Source: Actinomycetota bacterium (GTDB lineage Bacteria > Actinomycetota > Thermoleophilia > Solirubrobacterales > 70-9). Taken from it: a DNA stretch of 64,000 bases. Each line of letters opens with the position of its first letter. The stretch's first letter is position 1. The position numbers and the translations under genes are program-made. Below are positions 8,767-59,616 of the stretch, piece after piece. Below the pieces are notes generated by a model. It did no database searches. It was not told where the DNA came from and saw only the letters and a program-made list of their open reading frames with translations. The stretch lies in the NCBI GenBank assembly GCA_018268675.1, contig JAFDWB010000009.1, forward strand, positions 124,001-188,000, written 5' to 3'.

Positions 8767-9788
8767 CGATCCAGGTCAACCGTGCCCACGAGCCGGCCTA
8801 CGCCGGCCTGGGCACCTACTGCAAGGCGCCGCTGGCGCTGCGTCCCGAGGACCTCGACGGCGTCGACGTCGCGGTCCTCGGGGCACCCTTCGACGAAGGG
8901 GTGTCGTATCGGCCGGGGGCGCGGTTCGGGCCCCGGTCGATCCGCGAGGCGTGCAACTACCTCTGGGCGCCGCCGGCGCGGCCGCACATGAACCTGGGGA
9001 TCGACCCGTTCGCGGTGCTCTCGGTGGCCGACTACGGCGACGCGGAGTGCCCGCCCGCCGACCTTGCCGCGGCCCACCGTGAGGTGAAGGCGCGCCTCGG
9101 CGAGATCCTCGACGCGGGCGTCTTCCCCGTGGTCCTCGGCGGCGACCACTCGCTCGCCTACCCGGACGTGACGGCGGTGGTCGAGCGCTTCGGCGCCGGC
9201 AACGTGGGGCTGATCCAGTTCGACGCCCACGCCGACACCGCGGCGGGGGCGAGCGCCGACGGCCAGTTCGCCGCCCCGCACGGGACCGGGATGCGGCGGC
9301 TGGTCGAGGAGGGCCACATCCGCGGCGAGCACTTCATCCAGATCGGCCTGCACGGGTACTTCCCCGACCCCGGGGACTTCGACTGGATGCGCTCGGCCGG
9401 GATGCGGTGGTTCACGCGGTACGAGATCGACCGGCGCGGGATGGCGGCGGTGATGGACGACCTGATCGAGACCGCGGCGCGGGACCTTCCCGAGCACATC
9501 TTCGTCAGCTTCGACATCGACGTCTTCGACCCCGGGTTCGCCCCCGGGACCGGGGCGCCGGAGCCGGGCGGGCTGACGCCGCGCGAGGTCCTGCCGGCGC
9601 TCGTCCGCATCTTCCACGAGCTGCCGACGGTGGGGATGGACCTGGTCGAGGTGGCGCCGACCTACGACAACGCGTCGGGGATCACCTCGCTGCTGGCGCA
9701 CCGCTGCATCCTCGAGTCGCTCGCCGGGCTGGCCCTGCGGCGGAGCGGTCGCGAGCCGCGGCCGCAGGTCGACGCGCGTACGAGCTGA
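8763..9788 (+). CDS. Agmatinase/ureohydrolase family protein, copy 1
   Basis: 341 residues from ATG 8763, overlapping the livK stop (AATGA); an upstream in-frame ATG at 8733 would run into livK and is less likely. Ureohydrolase metal ligands are intact: GGDHSLAYP near residue 125, FDAHADT near 149 and SFDIDVFDP near 250. Such manganese enzymes release urea from agmatine, guanidinobutyrate, guanidinopropionate or related compounds. A close paralogue lies 1.2 kb downstream (11043-12047), with an M24 peptidase between. Family certain; which guanidino substrate is used is not. Confidence 0.9.
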   Translation: MTIQVNRAHEPAYAGLGTYCKAPLALRPEDLDGVDVAVLGAPFDEGVSYRPGARFGPRSIREACNYLWAPPARPHMNLGIDPFAVLSVADYGDAECPPADLAAAHREVKARLGEILDAGVFPVVLGGDHSLAYPDVTAVVERFGAGNVGLIQFDAHADTAAGASADGQFAAPHGTGMRRLVEEGHIRGEHFIQIGLHGYFPDPGDFDWMRSAGMRWFTRYEIDRRGMAAVMDDLIETAARDLPEHIFVSFDIDVFDPGFAPGTGAPEPGGLTPREVLPALVRIFHELPTVGMDLVEVAPTYDNASGITSLLAHRCILESLAGLALRRSGREPRPQVDARTS

Positions 9789-11046: not shown

Positions 11047-12047
11047 TCGGTGACACCGGTGGTCGCGGAGTGATCGGCGTCAACCGTCCCGACGAGCCGG
11101 CGTACGCCGGCCTGGGCACCTACTGCAAGGCGCCGCTGGCGCTGCGGCCGGAGGACCTCGAGGGGGTCGACGTGGCGATCCTCGGGGCGCCTTTCGACGA
11201 AGGGGTCTCGTTCCGGCCGGGGGCGCGCTTCGGGCCGCGGGCGATCCGCGAGGCCTGCAACTTCCTCTCCTCGCCGCCGGCGCGGCCGCACCTGGGGCTC
11301 GGCGTCGATCCCTTCGCGGTGCTCTCGGTAGCCGACTACGGCGACGCGGAGTGCCCGCCCGCCGACCTCGCCGCGGCGCACCGGGAGGTGAAGGCGCGGC
11401 TGGGGGAGATCCTCGACGCGGGCGTGATGCCGATCATCCTCGGCGGCGACCACTCGCTCGCCTACCCGGACGTGACCGCGGTGGTCGAGCGTTACGGCGC
11501 CGGGGAGGTCGGCGTGATCCAGTTCGACACCCACACCGACACCTCGCCGGTCGACTGGGGCGGTCCGCTCTCCCACGCGAGCCCGATGCGCCGCCTGGTC
11601 GAGGAGGGCCACGTGCGCGGCGAGCACTTCATCCAGGTCGGCATCCACGGGTACTACCCCGACCCCGAGGATTTCGACTGGGCCCGCTCGGTCGGCATGC
11701 GCTGGCACACCCGCTACGAGATCGACGAACGCGGCATGCCCGCCGTGGTCGACGACCTGATCGCGACCGCCGCCCGCGACCTCCCCGAGCACATCTTCGT
11801 CACCTTCGACATCGACGTCTTCGACGACCTCTACGCCCCCGGCACCGGCTCCCTGGAGTCCGGCGGCCTCGGCCCCCGCGAGATCTTCCCCGCCCTCAAC
11901 CGCATCTTCACCGAGCTCCCGATCGTCGGCATGGACCTGGTCGAGGTCTCGCCCACCTACGACACCTCCGGCATCACCGCCCTCCTCGCCCACCGCTGCG
12001 TCCTCGAGTCCCTCTGCGGCCTCGCCCTCCGCCCCCGCCCCGCCTGA
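11043..12047 (+). CDS. Agmatinase/ureohydrolase family protein, copy 2
   Basis: 334 residues from GTG 11043, which overlaps the M24 stop (GTGA); GTG 11070 is an alternative that aligns better with the N-terminus of copy 1. Closely similar to the protein at 8763-9788 (shared DEGVSxRPGARFGPR, VLSVADYGDAECPP). Metal motifs GGDHSLAYP, FDTHTDTS and TFDIDVFDD are kept, but DAHAD becomes DTHTD and the Pro after the last Asp is lost, so the two may differ in substrate. It is the last gene of the operon. Confidence 0.9.
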   Translation: MIGDTGGRGVIGVNRPDEPAYAGLGTYCKAPLALRPEDLEGVDVAILGAPFDEGVSFRPGARFGPRAIREACNFLSSPPARPHLGLGVDPFAVLSVADYGDAECPPADLAAAHREVKARLGEILDAGVMPIILGGDHSLAYPDVTAVVERYGAGEVGVIQFDTHTDTSPVDWGGPLSHASPMRRLVEEGHVRGEHFIQVGIHGYYPDPEDFDWARSVGMRWHTRYEIDERGMPAVVDDLIATAARDLPEHIFVTFDIDVFDDLYAPGTGSLESGGLGPREIFPALNRIFTELPIVGMDLVEVSPTYDTSGITALLAHRCVLESLCGLALRPRPA

Positions 12048-21144: not shown

Positions 21145-22787
21145 CGCGACTCCCCCTGAGCTTCCGAGCTTTCCCGCCACATATGGCGGTTAAGCTCGGA
21201 AGCACGACCGGAGGGCGTCGCGGGGACGGGCTCGGGCTGGGCCTCGGCGCGCGTCTCCCCCGCCGCCGGCTCCGCTTCCTGGCCCCCGTCCCGCATCAGC
21301 GCCCAGCGCGCGCCGCTCACCAGCACGGTGATGTGGAGGAGGGCGAAGGCGATGTTGTTGAGCGTGCTCGGGGAGCGCTGATGGAGGAAGCCCCAGAGCG
21401 AGCCGACGGCGAGGGCCGCGATCGCCACCAGCGTCGGCGCCACCGCGAGCGGCTGCCGATGTCCCGCCCCCTCCTTCGGGGTGACGACGAAGCGTCCGGC
21501 CCGCCGCGTGAGCGCCGCCAGCGAGGCGAGGATCTGCACCCAGAACGTCGCCGCCGCGAGCGCGAACCCGGCGAACGTGTAGGCGCCCCGCCCCGCCACC
21601 ACGACCATCGCCAGCGCGGTGCAGAAGTACGGCGCGAAGTGGAGGACGAACTGGTCCGCCGACGCCGCCGCGATCGGCTGCGCCCCGGTGAAGATCCGGA
21701 TCAGCGGGAACGACATGTAGGCGAGCAGCGTCCAGCCGGAGAGGAAGTACCCCGAGGACAGCAGGTAGTGGACCCGCTTGCGCAGCGGCAGCCGCGCCCG
21801 CACCACCCGTCCGATCGCCCCCAGGCACCCGCGCGCCCAGCGCCGCTGCTGGCCGATGTAGGAGGCCATGTCCTCCGGCCCGAGCCCCACCGCCAGCACC
21901 TCCGGCAGGTAGCGCGTCTCCCAGCCGCGTTCGTGCATCTCCACCGAGAGCACGAAGTCCTCGGTGATCGAGTCGGTCGGGAAGCCGCCCACCGACTCCA
22001 GCGCGGTGCGCCGGAAGAGCACGTTGGTGCCGCAGCAGAACATCGCCTGGTCGGCGTCCTTGCCGCGCGAGATCGCGCCGAAGAAGAGCGCCTGCTGCGC
22101 CCAGGCCGCCGCCGCGATCCCGCCCCGCCGCGAGTTCGCGTAGTACTGCGGGGTCTGCACGAAGGCGATCTGCTCGTCGACCATCGGCTCCAGCGTGCGC
22201 TCGAGGAAGTCGGGCCGCGGCACGTGGTCGCAGTCGAGCACGGCGACGAACGGCGAACCGGTCGAGAGCAGCGCCGAGTTGATGTTCCCGGCCTTCGCCC
22301 CCTCGCTCTCCTCGCGCGCCACGTAGCGCGCCCCGAGCCGCGCCGCCATCGCCTCGACCTGCGGCCGGCAGCCGTCGTCGAGCACGCTGACCACGAGCTC
22401 CGCGCCGCGCATCGCGAGCGCCGCCCGCACCGTCGGTTCGAGCACCGCGAGCGACTCGTCGTAGGTGGGGATGAGGACGTCGACCAGCGGCGGGGTCAGG
22501 GCGCGCGCCGCCCCGGGTCGCGCCGCCGGCCGGCGGTCCCGCCGCGTCACCGTCCACCAGAACCCGGTCGCCTGCGCCAGGTTGAAGAGTTCCGCCGCGA
22601 CCAGGATGCCGAACAGCAGCGGCACCCCGACCCGCGCCGGCTGCAGGAGCCAGCCGAAATACCAGAGCGAGAGCGGGACCATCAGGATCACGAGCAGCCG
22701 CAGCCGCCGCGGCGGGGCCGGCTCGGGGCTCCAGTCGGGCGGCAGCAGGCGGGGATCGGCGGCCATCGGGCGGGGGTCGGCGCTCAT
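21141..22787 (-). CDS. Cellulose-synthase-like processive glycosyltransferase (GT2, BcsA type)
   Basis: 548 residues from the ATGA at 22787. Two N-terminal membrane segments (residues 30-75), the GT-A domain, then about five more. Processive GT2 motifs are complete: IPTYDES near 108, DDGCRP, VLDCDHV (DxD) near 186, ITEDF near 275 and QQRRWARG near 310. There is no PilZ domain, so c-di-GMP control is not seen. The very C-terminus is written by a 44-bp palindrome (ASELNRHMWRESSEA). Linked to GH8 it probably makes a beta-glucan-type backbone; cellulose itself is not proven. Confidence 0.9.
   Translation of the reverse strand: MSADPRPMAADPRLLPPDWSPEPAPPRRLRLLVILMVPLSLWYFGWLLQPARVGVPLLFGILVAAELFNLAQATGFWWTVTRRDRRPAARPGAARALTPPLVDVLIPTYDESLAVLEPTVRAALAMRGAELVVSVLDDGCRPQVEAMAARLGARYVAREESEGAKAGNINSALLSTGSPFVAVLDCDHVPRPDFLERTLEPMVDEQIAFVQTPQYYANSRRGGIAAAAWAQQALFFGAISRGKDADQAMFCCGTNVLFRRTALESVGGFPTDSITEDFVLSVEMHERGWETRYLPEVLAVGLGPEDMASYIGQQRRWARGCLGAIGRVVRARLPLRKRVHYLLSSGYFLSGWTLLAYMSFPLIRIFTGAQPIAAASADQFVLHFAPYFCTALAMVVVAGRGAYTFAGFALAAATFWVQILASLAALTRRAGRFVVTPKEGAGHRQPLAVAPTLVAIAALAVGSLWGFLHQRSPSTLNNIAFALLHITVLVSGARWALMRDGGQEAEPAAGETRAEAQPEPVPATPSGRASELNRHMWRESSEAQGESR
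21160..21203. repeat. 44-bp palindrome at the synthase/GH8 gene junction
   Basis: Arms GCTTCCGAGCTT and AAGCTCGGAAGC (12 of 12) enclose a second stem CCGCCA/TGGCGG and a CATA loop. It encodes the last residues of the synthase (ASELNRHMWRESSEA) and begins exactly on a codon boundary. It lies just before the GH8 start and could control its translation. Confidence 0.8.
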
Positions 22788-25600
22788 CGGAATTCCCACA
22801 CCTCCACCTGGGAGAACTTCATCCGCCTGGTCAGCGTCCGTTCACGGCGGAGCTTCACCAGCGCCTTGCGCACCGCCTCGCGGTTGGCCGGGTCTTCGAA
22901 GAAGCTCTCCATGAGGAAGACGCGCGGCACCTTCGCCGCCGGCATGTGGGGACCGAGGCGCCGCGTCTTCAGCCCCGGCGGGTAGTAGGCGACCAGGTTG
23001 TTGAGGTCGTGCGGCATGTACATGAGCACGTCCTTGGGGCCGGAGCGGACCGCGACTTCGTGCAGCGCGCCTTCGAAGTTGTAGGTCCGCGGGTTGGTCC
23101 CGTTCCACTGCTGGTCGGCGAACCCGGCGGCGAGCGCGGCGATCGCGGCGGCGGCGAGGACGGCCCGCCCGCGCTCGGTGTGCGGCCAGGTGGTGACGGC
23201 GCGCGCCCCGAGCAGCAGCAGGAACGGCACCGCGGTCAGGTTGTAGCGGACCTCGAAGAGGAACGGCTGGTCGAGCGAGAGCGCGGTCAGCAGCGCGGTC
23301 GGCACCATCACCCCGGCGAAGAGCAGCGCCGTCGCCCGCGAGCGCCCTCGCCCGAGCAGCATCAGCGCCAGCAGGATCAGCAGCGGCCAGAGCGCCGTCA
23401 GGTTGGCCATCGTCGCGTTCGAGTGGTAGCCCGCGATCGCCCAGATCCCGTTCGTGAGGGCGGCGTAGAGCGAGACCTGGTTTTCGGTCCCGCTGTTCAC
23501 CTGGCTCGGCGAGTCGAACCCCTTGCCCGCTTCCTGGTTGACCGCGAACTGGTGGTGCGCGAAGGGGATCAGGGGCGCGATCAACGCCGCCATCAGCAGC
23601 GACGCGAGGACGCCGCCGATGATCAGCTTGGCCGTCGGGCGCCCGGCCCGCGACTCCTGCCAGGCGACGAGCGCGATCGCCCCCTCGAAGACGAACAGCG
23701 GCAGGAAGGCGAAGTACTGCGTCCAGGCGAGCGCCGCCCCCGCCAGCGCGTAGACGAGCCAGTAGCGGAGCCGCTTCGACTCGAGCGCCCGGTAGAGCGC
23801 CCAGATCGCCACCGTCGCCAGCAGCATCAGCTGCGCGTACATCCGCGCTTCCTGCGAGTACCAGACGACGATCGGGGCGACGACGGCGAAGCCCGCGGCG
23901 AGGAGGCCGGTCGTCCGGTCGTACATCGCCCGGCCGGCGACGTAGAGCATCGGCACCAGCGCGGTGGCGGCGAAGAGGGAGGGCAGCCGCAGCGCCAGCT
24001 CGCTGTCGCCGAAGGCGCGCACCGTCGCCCAGAGCACGGTGAAGTACCCGGGCGGGTGGACGTCGGTGTTGCGCAGCACTTCGATCATCCGGTGGAAGGG
24101 AAGCTGCGTCTCGAACCAGCTGGTGGCCTCGTCGAGCCAGAGGCTGCGCCCGGCGAGCAGCCGCAGGCCGATCGCGACGAGCACCATCCCGGTGAGGATC
24201 AGCGCGGTCTGCAGGCCCTGCCGATCGCGGAGCCGCGCCGGAGCGCGACGCGGTGGGCGATCGTCGTACCGATGGTGGGGCGTGTCGCCGTTGATCGGGA
24301 TCACGTCGGTGGGGATCTCGTCGGTCAGCGGCTCCTGGGTCGGCACCTCGGCGCGCGCCCCGACCGCGCGCTCCAGCCCCAGCGCCGCGGTCAGCGCGCT
24401 CGCCGCGATCAGGGTGGAGAGGCCGACGCCTTCGGCGCTGTCGCCGATCGCGAAGAGGAGCCCAAGCTGCAGGGCGCCCGCGCCGAGCGCGATCCAGGGG
24501 ATCCGGCGCCCGCCCCGCGCGACCGCGTCCGCGGCCAGCACCCGGGCCAGCCCGAGCAGCGCCATCGCCAGCATGTAGGCAGGCAGGAAGGAGGCGACGC
24601 CGTCGAAGCGCCCGCCGCCGTAGGCGAGCGTGAGCACCGGTTCGGCGGCGATCAGGGTGACGAGCGCGGCGGCGCCGCCGAGCAGCGCCGCCGTCCCCAG
24701 CGCCGCGCCGAGCGCCCCCGGCTCGCCCGCCTTGGCGCGCGGCATGAGCACGAAGGGGATCGTCGCGGTGGCGAATACCGCCGCCCCGCCGAGGGTCGAG
24801 ATCGCCGCGAAGCGCGCCGCCGCCCCGGCGCTCAGGGTCGCGTTGGCGAAGACGATGTCCTGGCACTGGACGACGGCGAGGAAGAGGAAGGCCGGCGCCG
24901 CGACCCGCGACGCCGGCCCCCCCGCCCGCGCCCCCCGCGCTCCGCTGTTCCTTTTGCCGACCTGTCCGGCAAAAAGAACAGCTGACGGGGAGGGGCGGGC
25001 GGGGCCGCGGCCCGCGCGCGCCACGACCAGGCCCGCGATCCCGCCGGCGACGACGCCCGCGGCGCCGCCCGCGACCCCGAGCGAGGCCGCCAGGACGGTC
25101 CCGACCGCCAGCCGCACGGCGGGTTCGGCGACGAGGCTCCCCGTTACCCAGCCGTAGGCGCGTTCGCCGTAGAGGCGGCCGCGGTCGAGCTCGATCAGCG
25201 CGACCAGGGTCGGGGTCGTCGCCAGCGCCAGCGCACTCGCCACCGAGAGCCCGAGCGAAGGCGCCAGCGCCACCGCGCCCGCCGCGATCGCGAGCGAGAC
25301 CGGGATCGACCCCGCCAGCACCCGGCCGCGCCGCCGCCGCGCCCGCTCGGGGTCGAGCGCGCCGCCCGCGGCGAAGCTCAGCGAGGGCACCGCGATCAGC
25401 AGGTAGAGGGCGAGGAAGGCGGCCAGCTCGGCGAAGCCGCCCGGGGTCAGCATCCGCGCCATCACCGCGGCGAAGAGCAGGTTGCCGACCCCGGAGAGGA
25501 TCTGCCCGCTCGCGACCAGCGCCTGCTCGCGCACCGCCGCGCGGCTGCGGCGCAGGGAGACGCCGGCCGCGCGGCGCAGAGCGATCGTTCCGGCGCTCAT
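22784..25600 (-). CDS. Polysaccharide flippase fused to GT39/ArnT-type glycosyltransferase
   Basis: 938 residues from ATG 25600 (ATGA overlap). Residues 1-450 resemble MATE/Wzx-type oligosaccharide flippases (about 12 hydrophobic segments, starting LVASGQILSGVGNLLFAAVM). A hydrophilic linker (TQEPLTDEIPTDVIPINGD, about 455-490) leads to a PMT/ArnT-type transferase: WLDEATSWFE carries the catalytic Asp-Glu of the first loop, DVHPPGYF follows, then many segments and a soluble C-terminus. The fusion would couple polymer or lipid-linked sugar flipping to sugar transfer on the outer face. A 39-bp palindrome lies in-frame at codons 207-219. Frame stays open throughout, so this is a fusion rather than two genes, barring a base error. 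Confidence 0.8.
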   Translation of the reverse strand: MSAGTIALRRAAGVSLRRSRAAVREQALVASGQILSGVGNLLFAAVMARMLTPGGFAELAAFLALYLLIAVPSLSFAAGGALDPERARRRRGRVLAGSIPVSLAIAAGAVALAPSLGLSVASALALATTPTLVALIELDRGRLYGERAYGWVTGSLVAEPAVRLAVGTVLAASLGVAGGAAGVVAGGIAGLVVARAGRGPARPSPSAVLFAGQVGKRNSGARGARAGGPASRVAAPAFLFLAVVQCQDIVFANATLSAGAAARFAAISTLGGAAVFATATIPFVLMPRAKAGEPGALGAALGTAALLGGAAALVTLIAAEPVLTLAYGGGRFDGVASFLPAYMLAMALLGLARVLAADAVARGGRRIPWIALGAGALQLGLLFAIGDSAEGVGLSTLIAASALTAALGLERAVGARAEVPTQEPLTDEIPTDVIPINGDTPHHRYDDRPPRRAPARLRDRQGLQTALILTGMVLVAIGLRLLAGRSLWLDEATSWFETQLPFHRMIEVLRNTDVHPPGYFTVLWATVRAFGDSELALRLPSLFAATALVPMLYVAGRAMYDRTTGLLAAGFAVVAPIVVWYSQEARMYAQLMLLATVAIWALYRALESKRLRYWLVYALAGAALAWTQYFAFLPLFVFEGAIALVAWQESRAGRPTAKLIIGGVLASLLMAALIAPLIPFAHHQFAVNQEAGKGFDSPSQVNSGTENQVSLYAALTNGIWAIAGYHSNATMANLTALWPLLILLALMLLGRGRSRATALLFAGVMVPTALLTALSLDQPFLFEVRYNLTAVPFLLLLGARAVTTWPHTERGRAVLAAAAIAALAAGFADQQWNGTNPRTYNFEGALHEVAVRSGPKDVLMYMPHDLNNLVAYYPPGLKTRRLGPHMPAAKVPRVFLMESFFEDPANREAVRKALVKLRRERTLTRRMKFSQVEVWEFR
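24944..24982. repeat. 39-bp palindrome family A, copy 1, inside the flippase domain
   Basis: Arms gctgttccttttgccg / cggcaaaaagaacagc (15 of 16 paired), 7-base loop. It occupies codons 207-219 of the flippase fusion exactly in frame, adding AVLFAGQVGKRNS in a hydrophilic stretch between membrane segments. Two other copies (41584, 52126) are between genes. Confidence 0.9.
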
Positions 25601-26739
25601 CGCCCGGGACCCCGCCGCAGCGGCAGCCCGCTCAGCTCGCCGACCTCCTCGCTGCGCCCTTCGGAGAGCAGCAGGCGCAGCAGGCGGAAGCCCTCCTCGG
25701 CGGTGGCGATCTGGCCCTCGACCGCGTTCGGCAGCGCCGGCTCGTGCTCGAGCGCGGCGCCGATCGCGGCGGCGATCTCCGCGGTCGAGGCGTCGGCGGC
25801 GACCAGCGGCTGGTCGAGGCGCCGCGCCAGGTCGGCGATCGCCGGCTCGCAGGCGATCGCGACGGCGGGAACCCCCGCCGCGGCGGCGGCGATCAGGGCG
25901 TGGGAGCCGAGCGCGACCACCGCCCCGATCCCGGCGAGGGAGGTGCGCCCGGCGCCGAGGTCGGGCAGCGGCTCGAGCACCTGCACCGGCCGACCGATCC
26001 GTCCGGCGAGCTCGGCGACCAGCCCGTGGTCGCGACCCTCGGCCGACGCCGCCCACGGCTGGAGGGCGATCTCGGCGCCGCCCGCGGCCGGCGCGGCGAG
26101 CGCGTCCCCGAGCCGCCCGATCAGCCCCGGGGGGCAGCCGCGCGCCTCGATCGCGACGACGATCCGCCGCGGCCTCGACGCACTGTCTGCATTTACCCCC
26201 GCTATACGGGGGTGATTGCAGACGGTCCCGGTGGCGCGGCCGTCCTGCACGTCGCCCCAGGCGGGGTCGGTCCCGATCCGGAACGGCCCCGGCACGCCCG
26301 CCGACTCGAGGTGGCGCGCCGAGAGCTCGTCGCGCAGCACCACCAGGTCGGCGCCGCCGAGCAGGCGCCGGCTGAGGCGCTCTTCCCAGGCGCTGCGCCC
26401 GCCGCGGGCGGAGATGCCGAGCAGCGCCGTCGGCCGCCCGCGCAGCTTCGCCGCCGTCACCAGCGCGAGCGCGGTGCGCAGTCCGGGCCGGGCCGCGCCG
26501 TCGGCGCCGATCGACCAGCCGGCCAGCACCGCGGCGTCGGCGCGGGCCGCGGCCATCACCACGGCGGCGGGCCGGCGCGCGTCGACGACCCGGCAGCCGT
26601 GCGCGGCGTGGGTGGCCGCGGGGTCGCTGGTCGCCAGCACCGGGGTCCACTCGGGCAGCGCCCGTTCGAAGGCGCCGAGGGTCGCCGACTCGCCCGCGTC
26701 GGAGGGGCCGAAGTGCCCGGCCAGCAGCGCGCTAGGCAC
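25597..26739 (-). CDS. Polysaccharide pyruvyltransferase family protein (CsaB/WcaK-like)
   Basis: 380 residues, GTG start within the end of the upstream GT4 gene. The pattern fits the GT-B-like pyruvyltransferase fold: LLAGHFGPSDAGESATLGAF at the N-terminus (G-x-x-N/D-x-G-D region), WSIGADG, LLGISARGG, VVLRDELSARHLESAG near 150 (the R-x-x-x-S motif), GTDPAW, and GSHALIAAAAAGVPAVAI near 280, where family members have R-x-H-x-x-I-x-A. It probably adds pyruvate ketals to the polymer. A 39-bp palindrome is inserted in frame at codons 173-185, between the two halves. Confidence 0.75.
   Translation of the reverse strand: MPSALLAGHFGPSDAGESATLGAFERALPEWTPVLATSDPAATHAAHGCRVVDARRPAAVVMAAARADAAVLAGWSIGADGAARPGLRTALALVTAAKLRGRPTALLGISARGGRSAWEERLSRRLLGGADLVVLRDELSARHLESAGVPGPFRIGTDPAWGDVQDGRATGTVCNHPRIAGVNADSASRPRRIVVAIEARGCPPGLIGRLGDALAAPAAGGAEIALQPWAASAEGRDHGLVAELAGRIGRPVQVLEPLPDLGAGRTSLAGIGAVVALGSHALIAAAAAGVPAVAIACEPAIADLARRLDQPLVAADASTAEIAAAIGAALEHEPALPNAVEGQIATAEEGFRLLRLLLSEGRSEEVGELSGLPLRRGPGR
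26185..26223. repeat. 39-bp palindrome inside the pyruvyltransferase-like gene
   Basis: Nested stems GTCTGCA/TGCAGAC and ACCCCCG/CGGGGGT around CTATA. It fills codons 173-185 exactly (VCNHPRIAGVNAD). Same length, codon phase and count as family A copy 1, but an unrelated sequence; no second copy noticed in the window. Confidence 0.85.
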
Positions 26740-33804: not shown

Positions 33805-33843
33805 CCCCGACGCTTGTCTTCGATACGCGGACAAGCGTCGGGG
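33805..33843. repeat. 39-bp hairpin family G, copy 1
   Basis: Perfect 14-bp arms CCCCGACGCTTGTC/GACAAGCGTCGGGG around TTCGATACGCG, starting one base after the MFS stop codon. A second copy is at 43577-43615. No T run follows; it could act as a terminator or mRNA 3' shield. Confidence 0.8.
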
Positions 33844-37228: not shown

Positions 37229-37311
37229 GGGCTGCGCGAGAGCCGCGTCACGCTTCCGTGACAGCGTCCGCGCGTCCCGCCGTCCACCGGTCACCCCCCG
37301 CGCACGCCCAG

Positions 37312-37450
37312 GTTGATGGGCCGAAAACCGGACCATGTGACGGGTTTTCGGCCCATCAACTTGGACCCGTCTACGGAAGGCGCACCGAAGCCACGCACTT
37401 CGTCACGACCTTCCACGCCAGGCGCCGCGAACCTCGTCCCCATCCTGAAA
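37312..37450 (+). repeat. Repeat family B, copy 1: palindrome plus 90-bp conserved tail
   Basis: Palindrome 37312-37360 has perfect 18-bp arms gttgatgggccgaaaacc / ggttttcggcccatcaac. The next 90 bases (to CATCCTGAAA at 37450) match the reverse complement of 59425-59513 at most positions (GGAAGGCGCACCGAAGC, GCACTTCGTCACG, CGTCCCCATCCTGAAA). So a 139-bp element exists in two orientations; a third, tail-less palindrome is at 51009. Confidence 0.88.
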
Positions 37451-43526: not shown

Positions 43527-43576
43527 CGGCCTGAACGGTACCGGCAGCGCGATCCGGCCGCCGTCCCTGCCGCCAC

Positions 43577-43615
43577 CCTCGACGCTTGTCCTCGATACGA
43601 AGACAAGCGTCGAGG
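43577..43615. repeat. 39-bp hairpin family G, copy 2
   Basis: Perfect 14-bp arms CCTCGACGCTTGTC/GACAAGCGTCGAGG, loop CTCGATACGAA, 50 bases upstream of the ilvD start. Copy 1 (33805) shares arm core CGACGCTTGTC and loop TCGATACG; the outermost arm pair changes but still pairs (CCCC/GGGG versus CCTC/GAGG). Confidence 0.8.
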
Positions 43616-43671
43616 GGCCGCCGCCGGCGTGTGCTTCAATCGTCAGACCAGAGAAAGGAGGTGGTCCTATT

Positions 43672-52050: not shown

Positions 52051-52057
52051 ACCACCC

Positions 52058-52110
52058 CCGGTGCGTTCGCAGTTACCCACACATAGCGTGGATAAGTGCG
52101 AACTCACCGG
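52058..52110. repeat. Palindrome family D, copy 2
   Basis: Arms CCGGTGCGTTCGCA and TGCGAACTCACCGG pair at 13 of 14 positions; interior GTTACCCACACATAGCGTGG then ATAAG. Shares GGTGCGTTCGCAGTT and GATAAGTGCGAAC with copy 1 at 35076-35124. The inverted CCCAC/GTGG interior resembles DnaA-box halves, but this is probably chance. Confidence 0.75.
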
Positions 52111-52125
52111 GGAGGTGGGTCGCCA

Positions 52126-52164
52126 GCTGTTCCTTTTGCCGACCCCTCCGGCAAAAGGAACAGC
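52126..52164. repeat. 39-bp palindrome family A, copy 3
   Basis: Perfect 16-bp arms gctgttccttttgccg / cggcaaaaggaacagc with loop ACCCCTC. Last of the four-palindrome cluster, 82 bases before the stop of the convergent MFS gene. Confidence 0.92.
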
Positions 52165-59424: not shown

Positions 59425-59562
59425 TTTTCAGGATGGGGACGGGGTTCGGGCGCCTTGCGTGGGAGCCCGTGACGAAGTGCACAGCTTCGGTGCGCCTTCC
59501 ATGGCCGCTCCAGGTTGACGGGGCGAAAACCGCTGATATGGAGCGGTTTTCGGCCCATCAAC
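59425..59562 (-). repeat. Repeat family B, copy 3: palindrome plus conserved tail, minus orientation
   Basis: Palindrome 59514-59562 has 18-bp arms with two mismatches in the left arm (gttgacggggcgaaaacc). The tail (59425-59513) reads on the minus strand as GGAAGGCGCACCGAAGC... CATCCTGAAA and matches copy 1 at most of its positions. It fills the gap before the MBL gene. Confidence 0.88.
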
Positions 59563-59616
59563 CTTGGGGGGCGCGGGACGCTCCGTAGCCGCATGGGCAC
59601 CTGAGAGGATTCGCGG

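What the first reader, a model, noticed from the sequence alone, without database searches (positions are those of the whole stretch)
24944..26223. 39-bp palindromes inserted in frame as exactly 13 codons inside two adjacent genes
Two unrelated 39-bp palindromes sit inside the flippase-GT39 gene (24944-24982, codons 207-219) and the pyruvyltransferase-like gene (26185-26223, codons 173-185). Both begin on a codon boundary, both are 13 codons, and both lie in hydrophilic, likely loop regions. The same family A sequence occurs twice outside genes, so it is a mobile or spreading element. In family A this frame is free of stops on both strands and gives nearly the same peptide either way (AVPFADxSGKRNS / AVPFAGxVGKRNS), so insertion is tolerated in either direction. 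This recalls the Rickettsia palindromic elements, which I do not know to be described in actinobacteria.
Basis: partly seen in the sequence, partly recalled or inferred. Interest (0 to 1): 0.82.

Follow-up and report, generated by a model that had tools for sequence, protein, structure and literature searches.

The report
Palindromic repeats inserted in frame into genes
In one uncultured genus of actinobacteria, many families of short palindromic DNA repeats have spread through the genome and some sit in frame inside essential genes, where they add a short loop between protein domains, a habit best known from Rickettsia.

Summary
The two 39-bp palindromes are real: codons 207-219 of a flippase-GT39 gene and 173-185 of a polysaccharide pyruvyltransferase gene. 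They are not isolated. Family A (GCTGTTCCTT...AAGGAACAGC) has 79 copies in this genome, occurs in 9 of 12 genomes of its genus (Solirubrobacterales, 70-9 group), and in none of 293 other genomes sampled from the class. A survey of 1.23 Mb of this genome found at least ten palindrome families. Most copies are intergenic, but 17 of 117 lie in genes, in frame, including IleRS, PabAB (twice), a MoaD-MoaE fusion, HyuA, PrmA and a C5-methyltransferase, mostly between domains. Sister species often lack the insert: one pyruvyltransferase is exactly 13 residues shorter there. Where species share a site, the inner stem differs by compensated base pairs and often resembles other copies of the same genome (concerted evolution). 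This works like Rickettsia palindromic elements and intragenic REPs, but family A lacks a GTAG/CGTC tag and no Y1 transposase was found in 12 genomes.

The parts
24944..24982 (-). Family A palindrome, 39 bp, in frame (codons 207-219) in the flippase-GT39 gene
   Evidence: orthologous 39-bp palindromes in G006 and G007
22784..25600 (-). Host gene: flippase domain followed by a PMT_2 (GT39-type) domain, 938 aa
   Evidence: ORF, gene, Pfam PF13231
26185..26223 (-). Family B palindrome, 39 bp, in frame (codons 173-185) in the pyruvyltransferase gene; absent as exactly 13 residues in G003
25597..26739 (-). Host gene: polysaccharide pyruvyl transferase, 380 aa; the Pfam match ends at residue 161, 11 residues before the insert
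   Evidence: PF04230; low-confidence coil around 161-190 in the model
21160..21203 (-). Family H palindrome, 44 bp, coding most of the C-terminal tail (ASELNRHMWRESSEA) of a family 2 glycosyltransferase
   Evidence: a second H copy gives ASELSRHIWRESSEA in an unrelated peptidase C26 gene
41584..41622 (.). Family A palindrome, intergenic, between convergent genes
52126..52164 (.). Family A palindrome, intergenic, beside a family D palindrome
52056..52112 (.). Family D palindrome (GTTCGCA...TGCGAAC), composite with the family A copy
33805..33843 (.). Family C palindrome (CGACGCTTGTC...GACAAGCGTCG), intergenic; family C is in genes elsewhere
43576..43616 (.). Family C palindrome, intergenic
37308..37364 (.). 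Family E palindrome (GTTGATGGGCCGAAAACC...), intergenic; family E is in PabAB, HyuA and a membrane protein gene elsewhere
59512..59564 (.). Family E palindrome, intergenic

Best explanation
The two palindromes are in-gene copies of dispersed palindromic repeats that multiply in this genus, as REPs and Rickettsia palindromic elements do elsewhere. The whole palindrome is the unit. Copies land mostly between genes, near 3' ends; a copy that lands in a gene survives only if the net change is a multiple of three, has no stop in frame, and falls in an interdomain linker, loop or C-terminal tail. The copies stay active or are rewritten by one another: inner stems change in compensated pairs and become alike within a genome, also inside genes. 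Shown: dispersal, occupied and empty orthologous sites, in-frame placement, linker position, compensated stems, inner cores nearly private to each genome. Inferred: that the movement is copying of a hairpin, most likely as single-stranded DNA at the replication fork, by an unidentified nuclease or transposase acting in trans; no Y1 transposase was found in 12 genomes of the genus.
For: 79 family A copies in the genome, 9 of 12 genus genomes, 0 of 293 other class genomes. At least ten families in 1.23 Mb, 17 of 117 family copies in genes. Orthologues: pyruvyltransferase 13 residues shorter in G003; HyuA insert in G000 and G011, not in six others; second PabAB insert in five species, not in G009 or G002; MoaD-MoaE linker without palindrome in four species. 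Pfam boundaries flank the inserts in IleRS, PabAB, MoaDE and FAD oxidase; a solved IleRS has a gap there. Compensation: inner pairs 76% Watson-Crick in A against 56% (sd 1.5) in shuffles, 75% against 50% (sd 2.8) in E; only 2 of 86 A cores and 2 of 33 E cores are shared between genomes. E cores of G011 are nearly all GCGCTGATATAGAGCGC, and its PabAB and HyuA copies have that core. Outer arms of A, E and C almost never occur unpaired. Context of A: 44 convergent, 45 tandem, 4 divergent.
Against: No mobilising enzyme was identified and no target-site duplication was defined. No strain-level presence/absence polymorphism was available; the genomes compared are different species and mostly metagenome assemblies. 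Net insert sizes often differ from the palindrome length, so flanks change too. Shuffle controls do not remove relatedness. Orthologous copies could be old insertions under selection for the stem rather than active elements.
Confidence: 0.8

Rival explanations
1. The palindromes are functional sites (bidirectional terminators, mRNA stabilisers or binding sites of a chromosome-organising or regulatory protein) kept by selection, and the in-gene copies are working sites.
For: Depleted between divergent genes and close to 3' ends; outer arms fixed; stems compensated; strong RNA hairpins.
Against: In-gene copies sit mid-gene in essential genes such as IleRS, where a terminator would be harmful; genus members with 2.4-2.7 Mb genomes have none or almost none; sites come and go between species.
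Confidence: 0.12
2. Compensated stem changes come from replication errors (template switching in quasi-palindromes) acting on old, immobile inserts, without transposition.
For: Pairs change together without regard to the peptide; template switching is known to perfect quasi-palindromes (own knowledge).
Against: It does not explain dispersal of identical arms to unrelated sites, or the same core in dozens of copies of one genome, in-gene copies included.
Confidence: 0.1
3. The inserts are ordinary protein linkers whose DNA is palindromic by chance or by codon bias in a 73% G+C genome.
For: Many non-family palindromes inside genes are GC-rich and probably chance.
Against: The arms are the same in unrelated genes and between genes; the elements are G+C-poor (54-56%) in a 73% G+C window; the Markov control gives 2 palindromes per 350 kb against 56 found in 354 kb.
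Confidence: 0.01
4. Assembly artefact or contamination.
For: The genome is in 95 contigs, and some repeats lie at contig ends.
Against: The same families and sites occur in separately assembled genomes.
Confidence: 0.01

Closest known systems
Rickettsia palindromic elements (RPE), Ogata et al. 2000, 2002; summarised in PMC10969869
   Same: Several families of palindromic repeats, both intergenic and in frame inside unrelated genes.
   Different: RPEs are described there as about 150 bp; here 33-65 bp. Different phylum; no sequence comparison was made. Here inner stems are nearly private to each genome and compensated.
Intragenic GTAG and CGTC REPs (BMC Genomics 2013, PMC3733652)
   Same: Small palindromes, mainly beside 3' ends, some inside genes including tRNA synthetases; the paper suggests linkers or loops. 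RPE-4 and RPE-6 are CGTC REPs. CGTC REPs also lack a dedicated transposase.
   Different: Family A has no GTAG or CGTC tag, a 17-bp stem (REP stems 5-13 bp), and a fixed outer with variable inner stem. The words Actinobacteria and Streptomyces do not occur in that paper's text.
Coding palindromes in Nematomorpha mitochondria (PMC6649704)
   Same: Inverted repeats inside protein-coding genes.
   Different: Up to 284 bp, perfect and mitochondrial; not described as a dispersed family in a bacterial chromosome (abstract only read).
MITEs
   Same: Short, dispersed, inverted-repeat units without a transposase of their own.
   Different: No parent transposon with these arms in 1.23 Mb (unpaired arms nearly absent); no target-site duplication shown.

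Membership tests
Rickettsia palindromic elements | Palindromic repeat families in many copies, intergenic and genic | tested here: met
Rickettsia palindromic elements | In-frame insertion in unrelated genes, absent from some orthologues | tested here: met
Rickettsia palindromic elements | Length about 150 bp as in the first description | tested here: not met
   33-65 bp; length as given in PMC10969869
Rickettsia palindromic elements | Sequence homology to a named RPE family | not tested
   RPE sequences were not compared; family A pattern hits in unrelated bacteria were a few single matches, mostly with other spacings
GTAG or CGTC REP | GTAG or CGTC tetranucleotide at one end | tested here: not met
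   Flank frequencies of 137 family A copies show no such tag; other families were not tested formally
GTAG or CGTC REP | Stem of 5-13 bp | tested here: not met
   Family A stem 17 bp; range from PMC3733652
GTAG REP with RAYT | Y1 tyrosine transposase (PF01797) in the genome | tested here: not met
   0 of 12 genus genomes; found in 5 of 14 control genomes
REP in general | Mainly between convergent and tandem genes | tested here: met
   44 convergent, 45 tandem, 4 divergent
MITE | Terminal inverted repeats shared with an autonomous transposon | tested here: inconclusive
   None in 1.23 Mb; the rest of the genome was not scanned for solo arms
MITE | Target-site duplication | not tested
   Linkers are too variable between species to define the target

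The most novel reading that the evidence does not exclude
A class of untagged palindromic elements, without Y1 transposase, whose dispersed copies are rewritten in concert within each genome, copies inside essential genes included, so that peptide loops of housekeeping enzymes change in step with a selfish repeat.
Probability: 0.4. Interest if true: 0.78.

Novelty: new variant of a known kind. Interest (0 to 1): 0.62.

Why it matters
It suggests that in-frame palindromic elements also arose outside Rickettsia and the known REP taxa, in an actinobacterial lineage with 73% G+C. Many orthologous sites are empty in one species and filled in the next, so insertion, tolerance and turnover of coding palindromes can be compared directly. 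It also offers a natural record of which protein linkers accept inserts, and a case where stem pairing seems to win over peptide sequence.

Tried and rejected
Y1 transposase (PF01797): none in 12 genomes. Reverse transcriptase (PF00078): only in G008 and G010, no link with copy number. Rfam: no relevant family, only sub-threshold hairpin matches. A parent IS with family A arms: the 8 arms flagged unpaired in 1.23 Mb all have a one- or few-mismatch partner. A fixed 39-bp unit for all families: rejected, lengths run 33-65 bp. A rule of phase 0: suggested, rejected (IleRS copy in phase 1, family C in all phases). The idea that one linker is hit by unrelated families in different species: weakened, since the IleRS copies of G009 and G008 look A-like and the MTase and MoaDE copies share a TTGTC-N11-GACAA-like core; clear only for FAD oxidase (C against a 65-bp type) and one membrane protein gene. 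PDB profile of the pyruvyltransferase: no hit. The AlphaFold2 model has low confidence (mean pLDDT 58.6).

Full report
Observation. Both palindromes are present as described. They occupy codons 207-219 and 173-185. They are G+C-poor (54% and 56%) in a window of 72.7% G+C. As RNA they fold into hairpins of about -25 kcal/mol, z -7.8 and -6.2. Pairing around family A drops to near expectation within a few bases outside the 39 bp, so 39 bp is close to the real unit of that family.

Family A. The pattern GCTGTTCYTT-N15..25-AARGAACAGC has 79 matches in the genome and none for the reversed control. Although the gap was free to vary, 139 of 148 fetched copies are 39 bp; several of the others come from unrelated bacteria with single hits. 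It occurs in 9 of 12 genomes of the genus and in none of 38 other genomes of the family, and in none of 293 genomes outside the genus sampled across the class. Named relatives include Solirubrobacterales bacterium 70-9 and MAGs SZAS-9, -11, -14 and -15. Contexts: 44 convergent, 45 tandem, 4 divergent, 43 at locus edges, 5 inside genes. Family B has four copies by an approximate search.

Other families. A survey of 1.228 Mb of the genome (window plus stretches of C82, C87, C91, C93) found at least ten palindrome families with fixed outer arms. C82 alone has 56 palindromes in 354 kb, against 2 in a 350-kb Markov control. By my own codon-usage gene caller (coding fraction 0.888), 17 of 117 copies of eleven named families lie in genes; families A, B, C, E, H and M give all 17, families D, F, G, I and K give 0 of 53 (Fisher p 2e-5). 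The grouping was made after seeing the data, so this p-value is descriptive.

Genes hit. IleRS (A), FAD oxidase (C), C5-methyltransferase (C), Gfo/Idh (C), MoaD-MoaE (C), PabAB twice (E), a membrane protein gene called GTE here (E), HyuA (E), PrmA (M), a large protein without Pfam match (A), and C-terminal tails of two unrelated proteins (H). Pfam puts most inserts between or beyond domains: IleRS 679-694 between tRNA-synt_1 (to 635) and Anticodon_1 (from 699); PabAB 217-231 and 403-419 in the two gaps between three domains; MoaDE 88-99 between ThiS (to 82) and MoaE (from 106). Exceptions are the methyltransferase and Gfo/Idh, where the insert lies within the domain match. A solved IleRS (8c8w) aligns with a gap at the insert. 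The pyruvyltransferase Pfam match ends at residue 161, and a low-confidence model has coil from about 161 to 190.

Orthologues. Seven genus genomes were searched with two chimeric queries made of segments of these proteins; sites were then aligned and scanned for palindromes. Pyruvyltransferase linker: 28 residues here, 15 in G003, no palindrome in G003, G006 or G007; the first alignment shows a clean 13-residue gap. HyuA: family E in G000 and G011, none in six others apart from one short chance-like palindrome in G008. PabAB second site: family E in five species, none in G009 and G002. MoaDE: palindromes in G000, G006 and G008, none in G003, G007, G011 and G009. IleRS: 45-49 bp A palindromes in G000 and G006, A-like ones in G009 and G008, none in G011, G003 and G002. 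PrmA: 58-65 bp palindromes in G000, G003 and G009, none in G011, G006, G008 and G002. FAD oxidase: family C in G000, a 65-bp type in G009 and G002, none in G006, G007 and G003. Flippase: palindromes in G000, G006 and G007; in G007 the inner stem is GGCG/CGCC in place of GCCG/CGGC; G003's contigs end at the site. No orthologue of the Gfo/Idh site was aligned.

Compensation and concerted change. In 86 distinct A copies the inner pairs are 76% Watson-Crick against 56% (sd 1.5%) after shuffling; in 33 E copies 75% against 50% (sd 2.8%). Only 2 cores in each family occur in more than one genome. Between orthologous in-gene copies, 47 of 61 pair comparisons changed on both sides kept Watson-Crick pairing and 59 changed on one side (comparisons are not independent). 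In G011 nearly all listed E copies have the core GCGCTGATATAGAGCGC, in G006 most have CTCAAG...CTTGAG. The second PabAB copy follows its own genome: GCGCT...AGCGC in G011, CCGCT...AGCGG in G000, CTCAAG... in G006. Orthologous PabAB copies differ at 2-15 of 17 core positions, while in G000, G003, G006 and G008 the nearest non-identical copy of the same genome is 1-3 off, and G011 has identical copies elsewhere. The membrane protein site is less clear: G000, G007 and G008 share a core type there. Re-insertion, conversion between copies, or a shared binding factor could each cause the pattern; the data do not separate them.

Mechanism. The outer arms almost never occur alone, so the whole palindrome is the unit. 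Y1 transposase is absent from 12 genomes and reverse transcriptase does not track copy number. Movement by an unidentified enzyme acting on the hairpin is inference.

Known systems. RPEs are multi-family palindromes, nearly half of them genic in R. conorii (PMC10969869). Intragenic GTAG and CGTC REPs are reported from several species, some in tRNA synthetases, and RPE-4 and RPE-6 belong to CGTC REPs (PMC3733652). So the kind is known. The taxon, the lack of tag and Y1 enzyme, the longer stems with private compensated cores, and the set of empty and filled orthologous sites appear new. Literature was checked only in an open-access library; searches for Solirubrobacterales or Thermoleophilia with such repeats gave nothing relevant.

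Limits. The genomes are mostly metagenome assemblies; gene calls outside Pfam hits are mine; 29% of the genome was surveyed; the Ogata papers themselves were not available.

Noticed in passing
L029:1319-1862 (G000:C93) and about 15 further loci such as L026, L070, L025: A repeat of about 540 bp, roughly 83-95% identical between copies, with several internal hairpins including a family A and a family I palindrome, often at contig ends.
   Followed up: partly
window 52056-52164: Composite of a family D and a family A palindrome, also seen at other loci (L003, L004), like a mosaic BIME.
   Followed up: partly
window 21160-21203; L196:1445-1488: Family H palindrome gives nearly the same C-terminal tail (ASEL-RH-WRESSEA) to two unrelated proteins.
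   Followed up: partly
genomes G001, G002, G004, G009 against G000, G006, G008, G011: Genus members of 2.4-2.7 Mb have 0-2 family A copies and no family E copies; those of 4.2-4.7 Mb have 18-108 A copies and 29-91 E copies.
   Followed up: no
L287 (G003) methyltransferase linker: Two successive palindrome-like inserts (LPLVTHRVTKG, SFVTQRVTN) in one linker.
   Followed up: no
window 8768-9578 and 11072-11873: Two pairs of direct repeats of at least 300 bp, 81-88% identical, probably duplicated genes.
   Followed up: no
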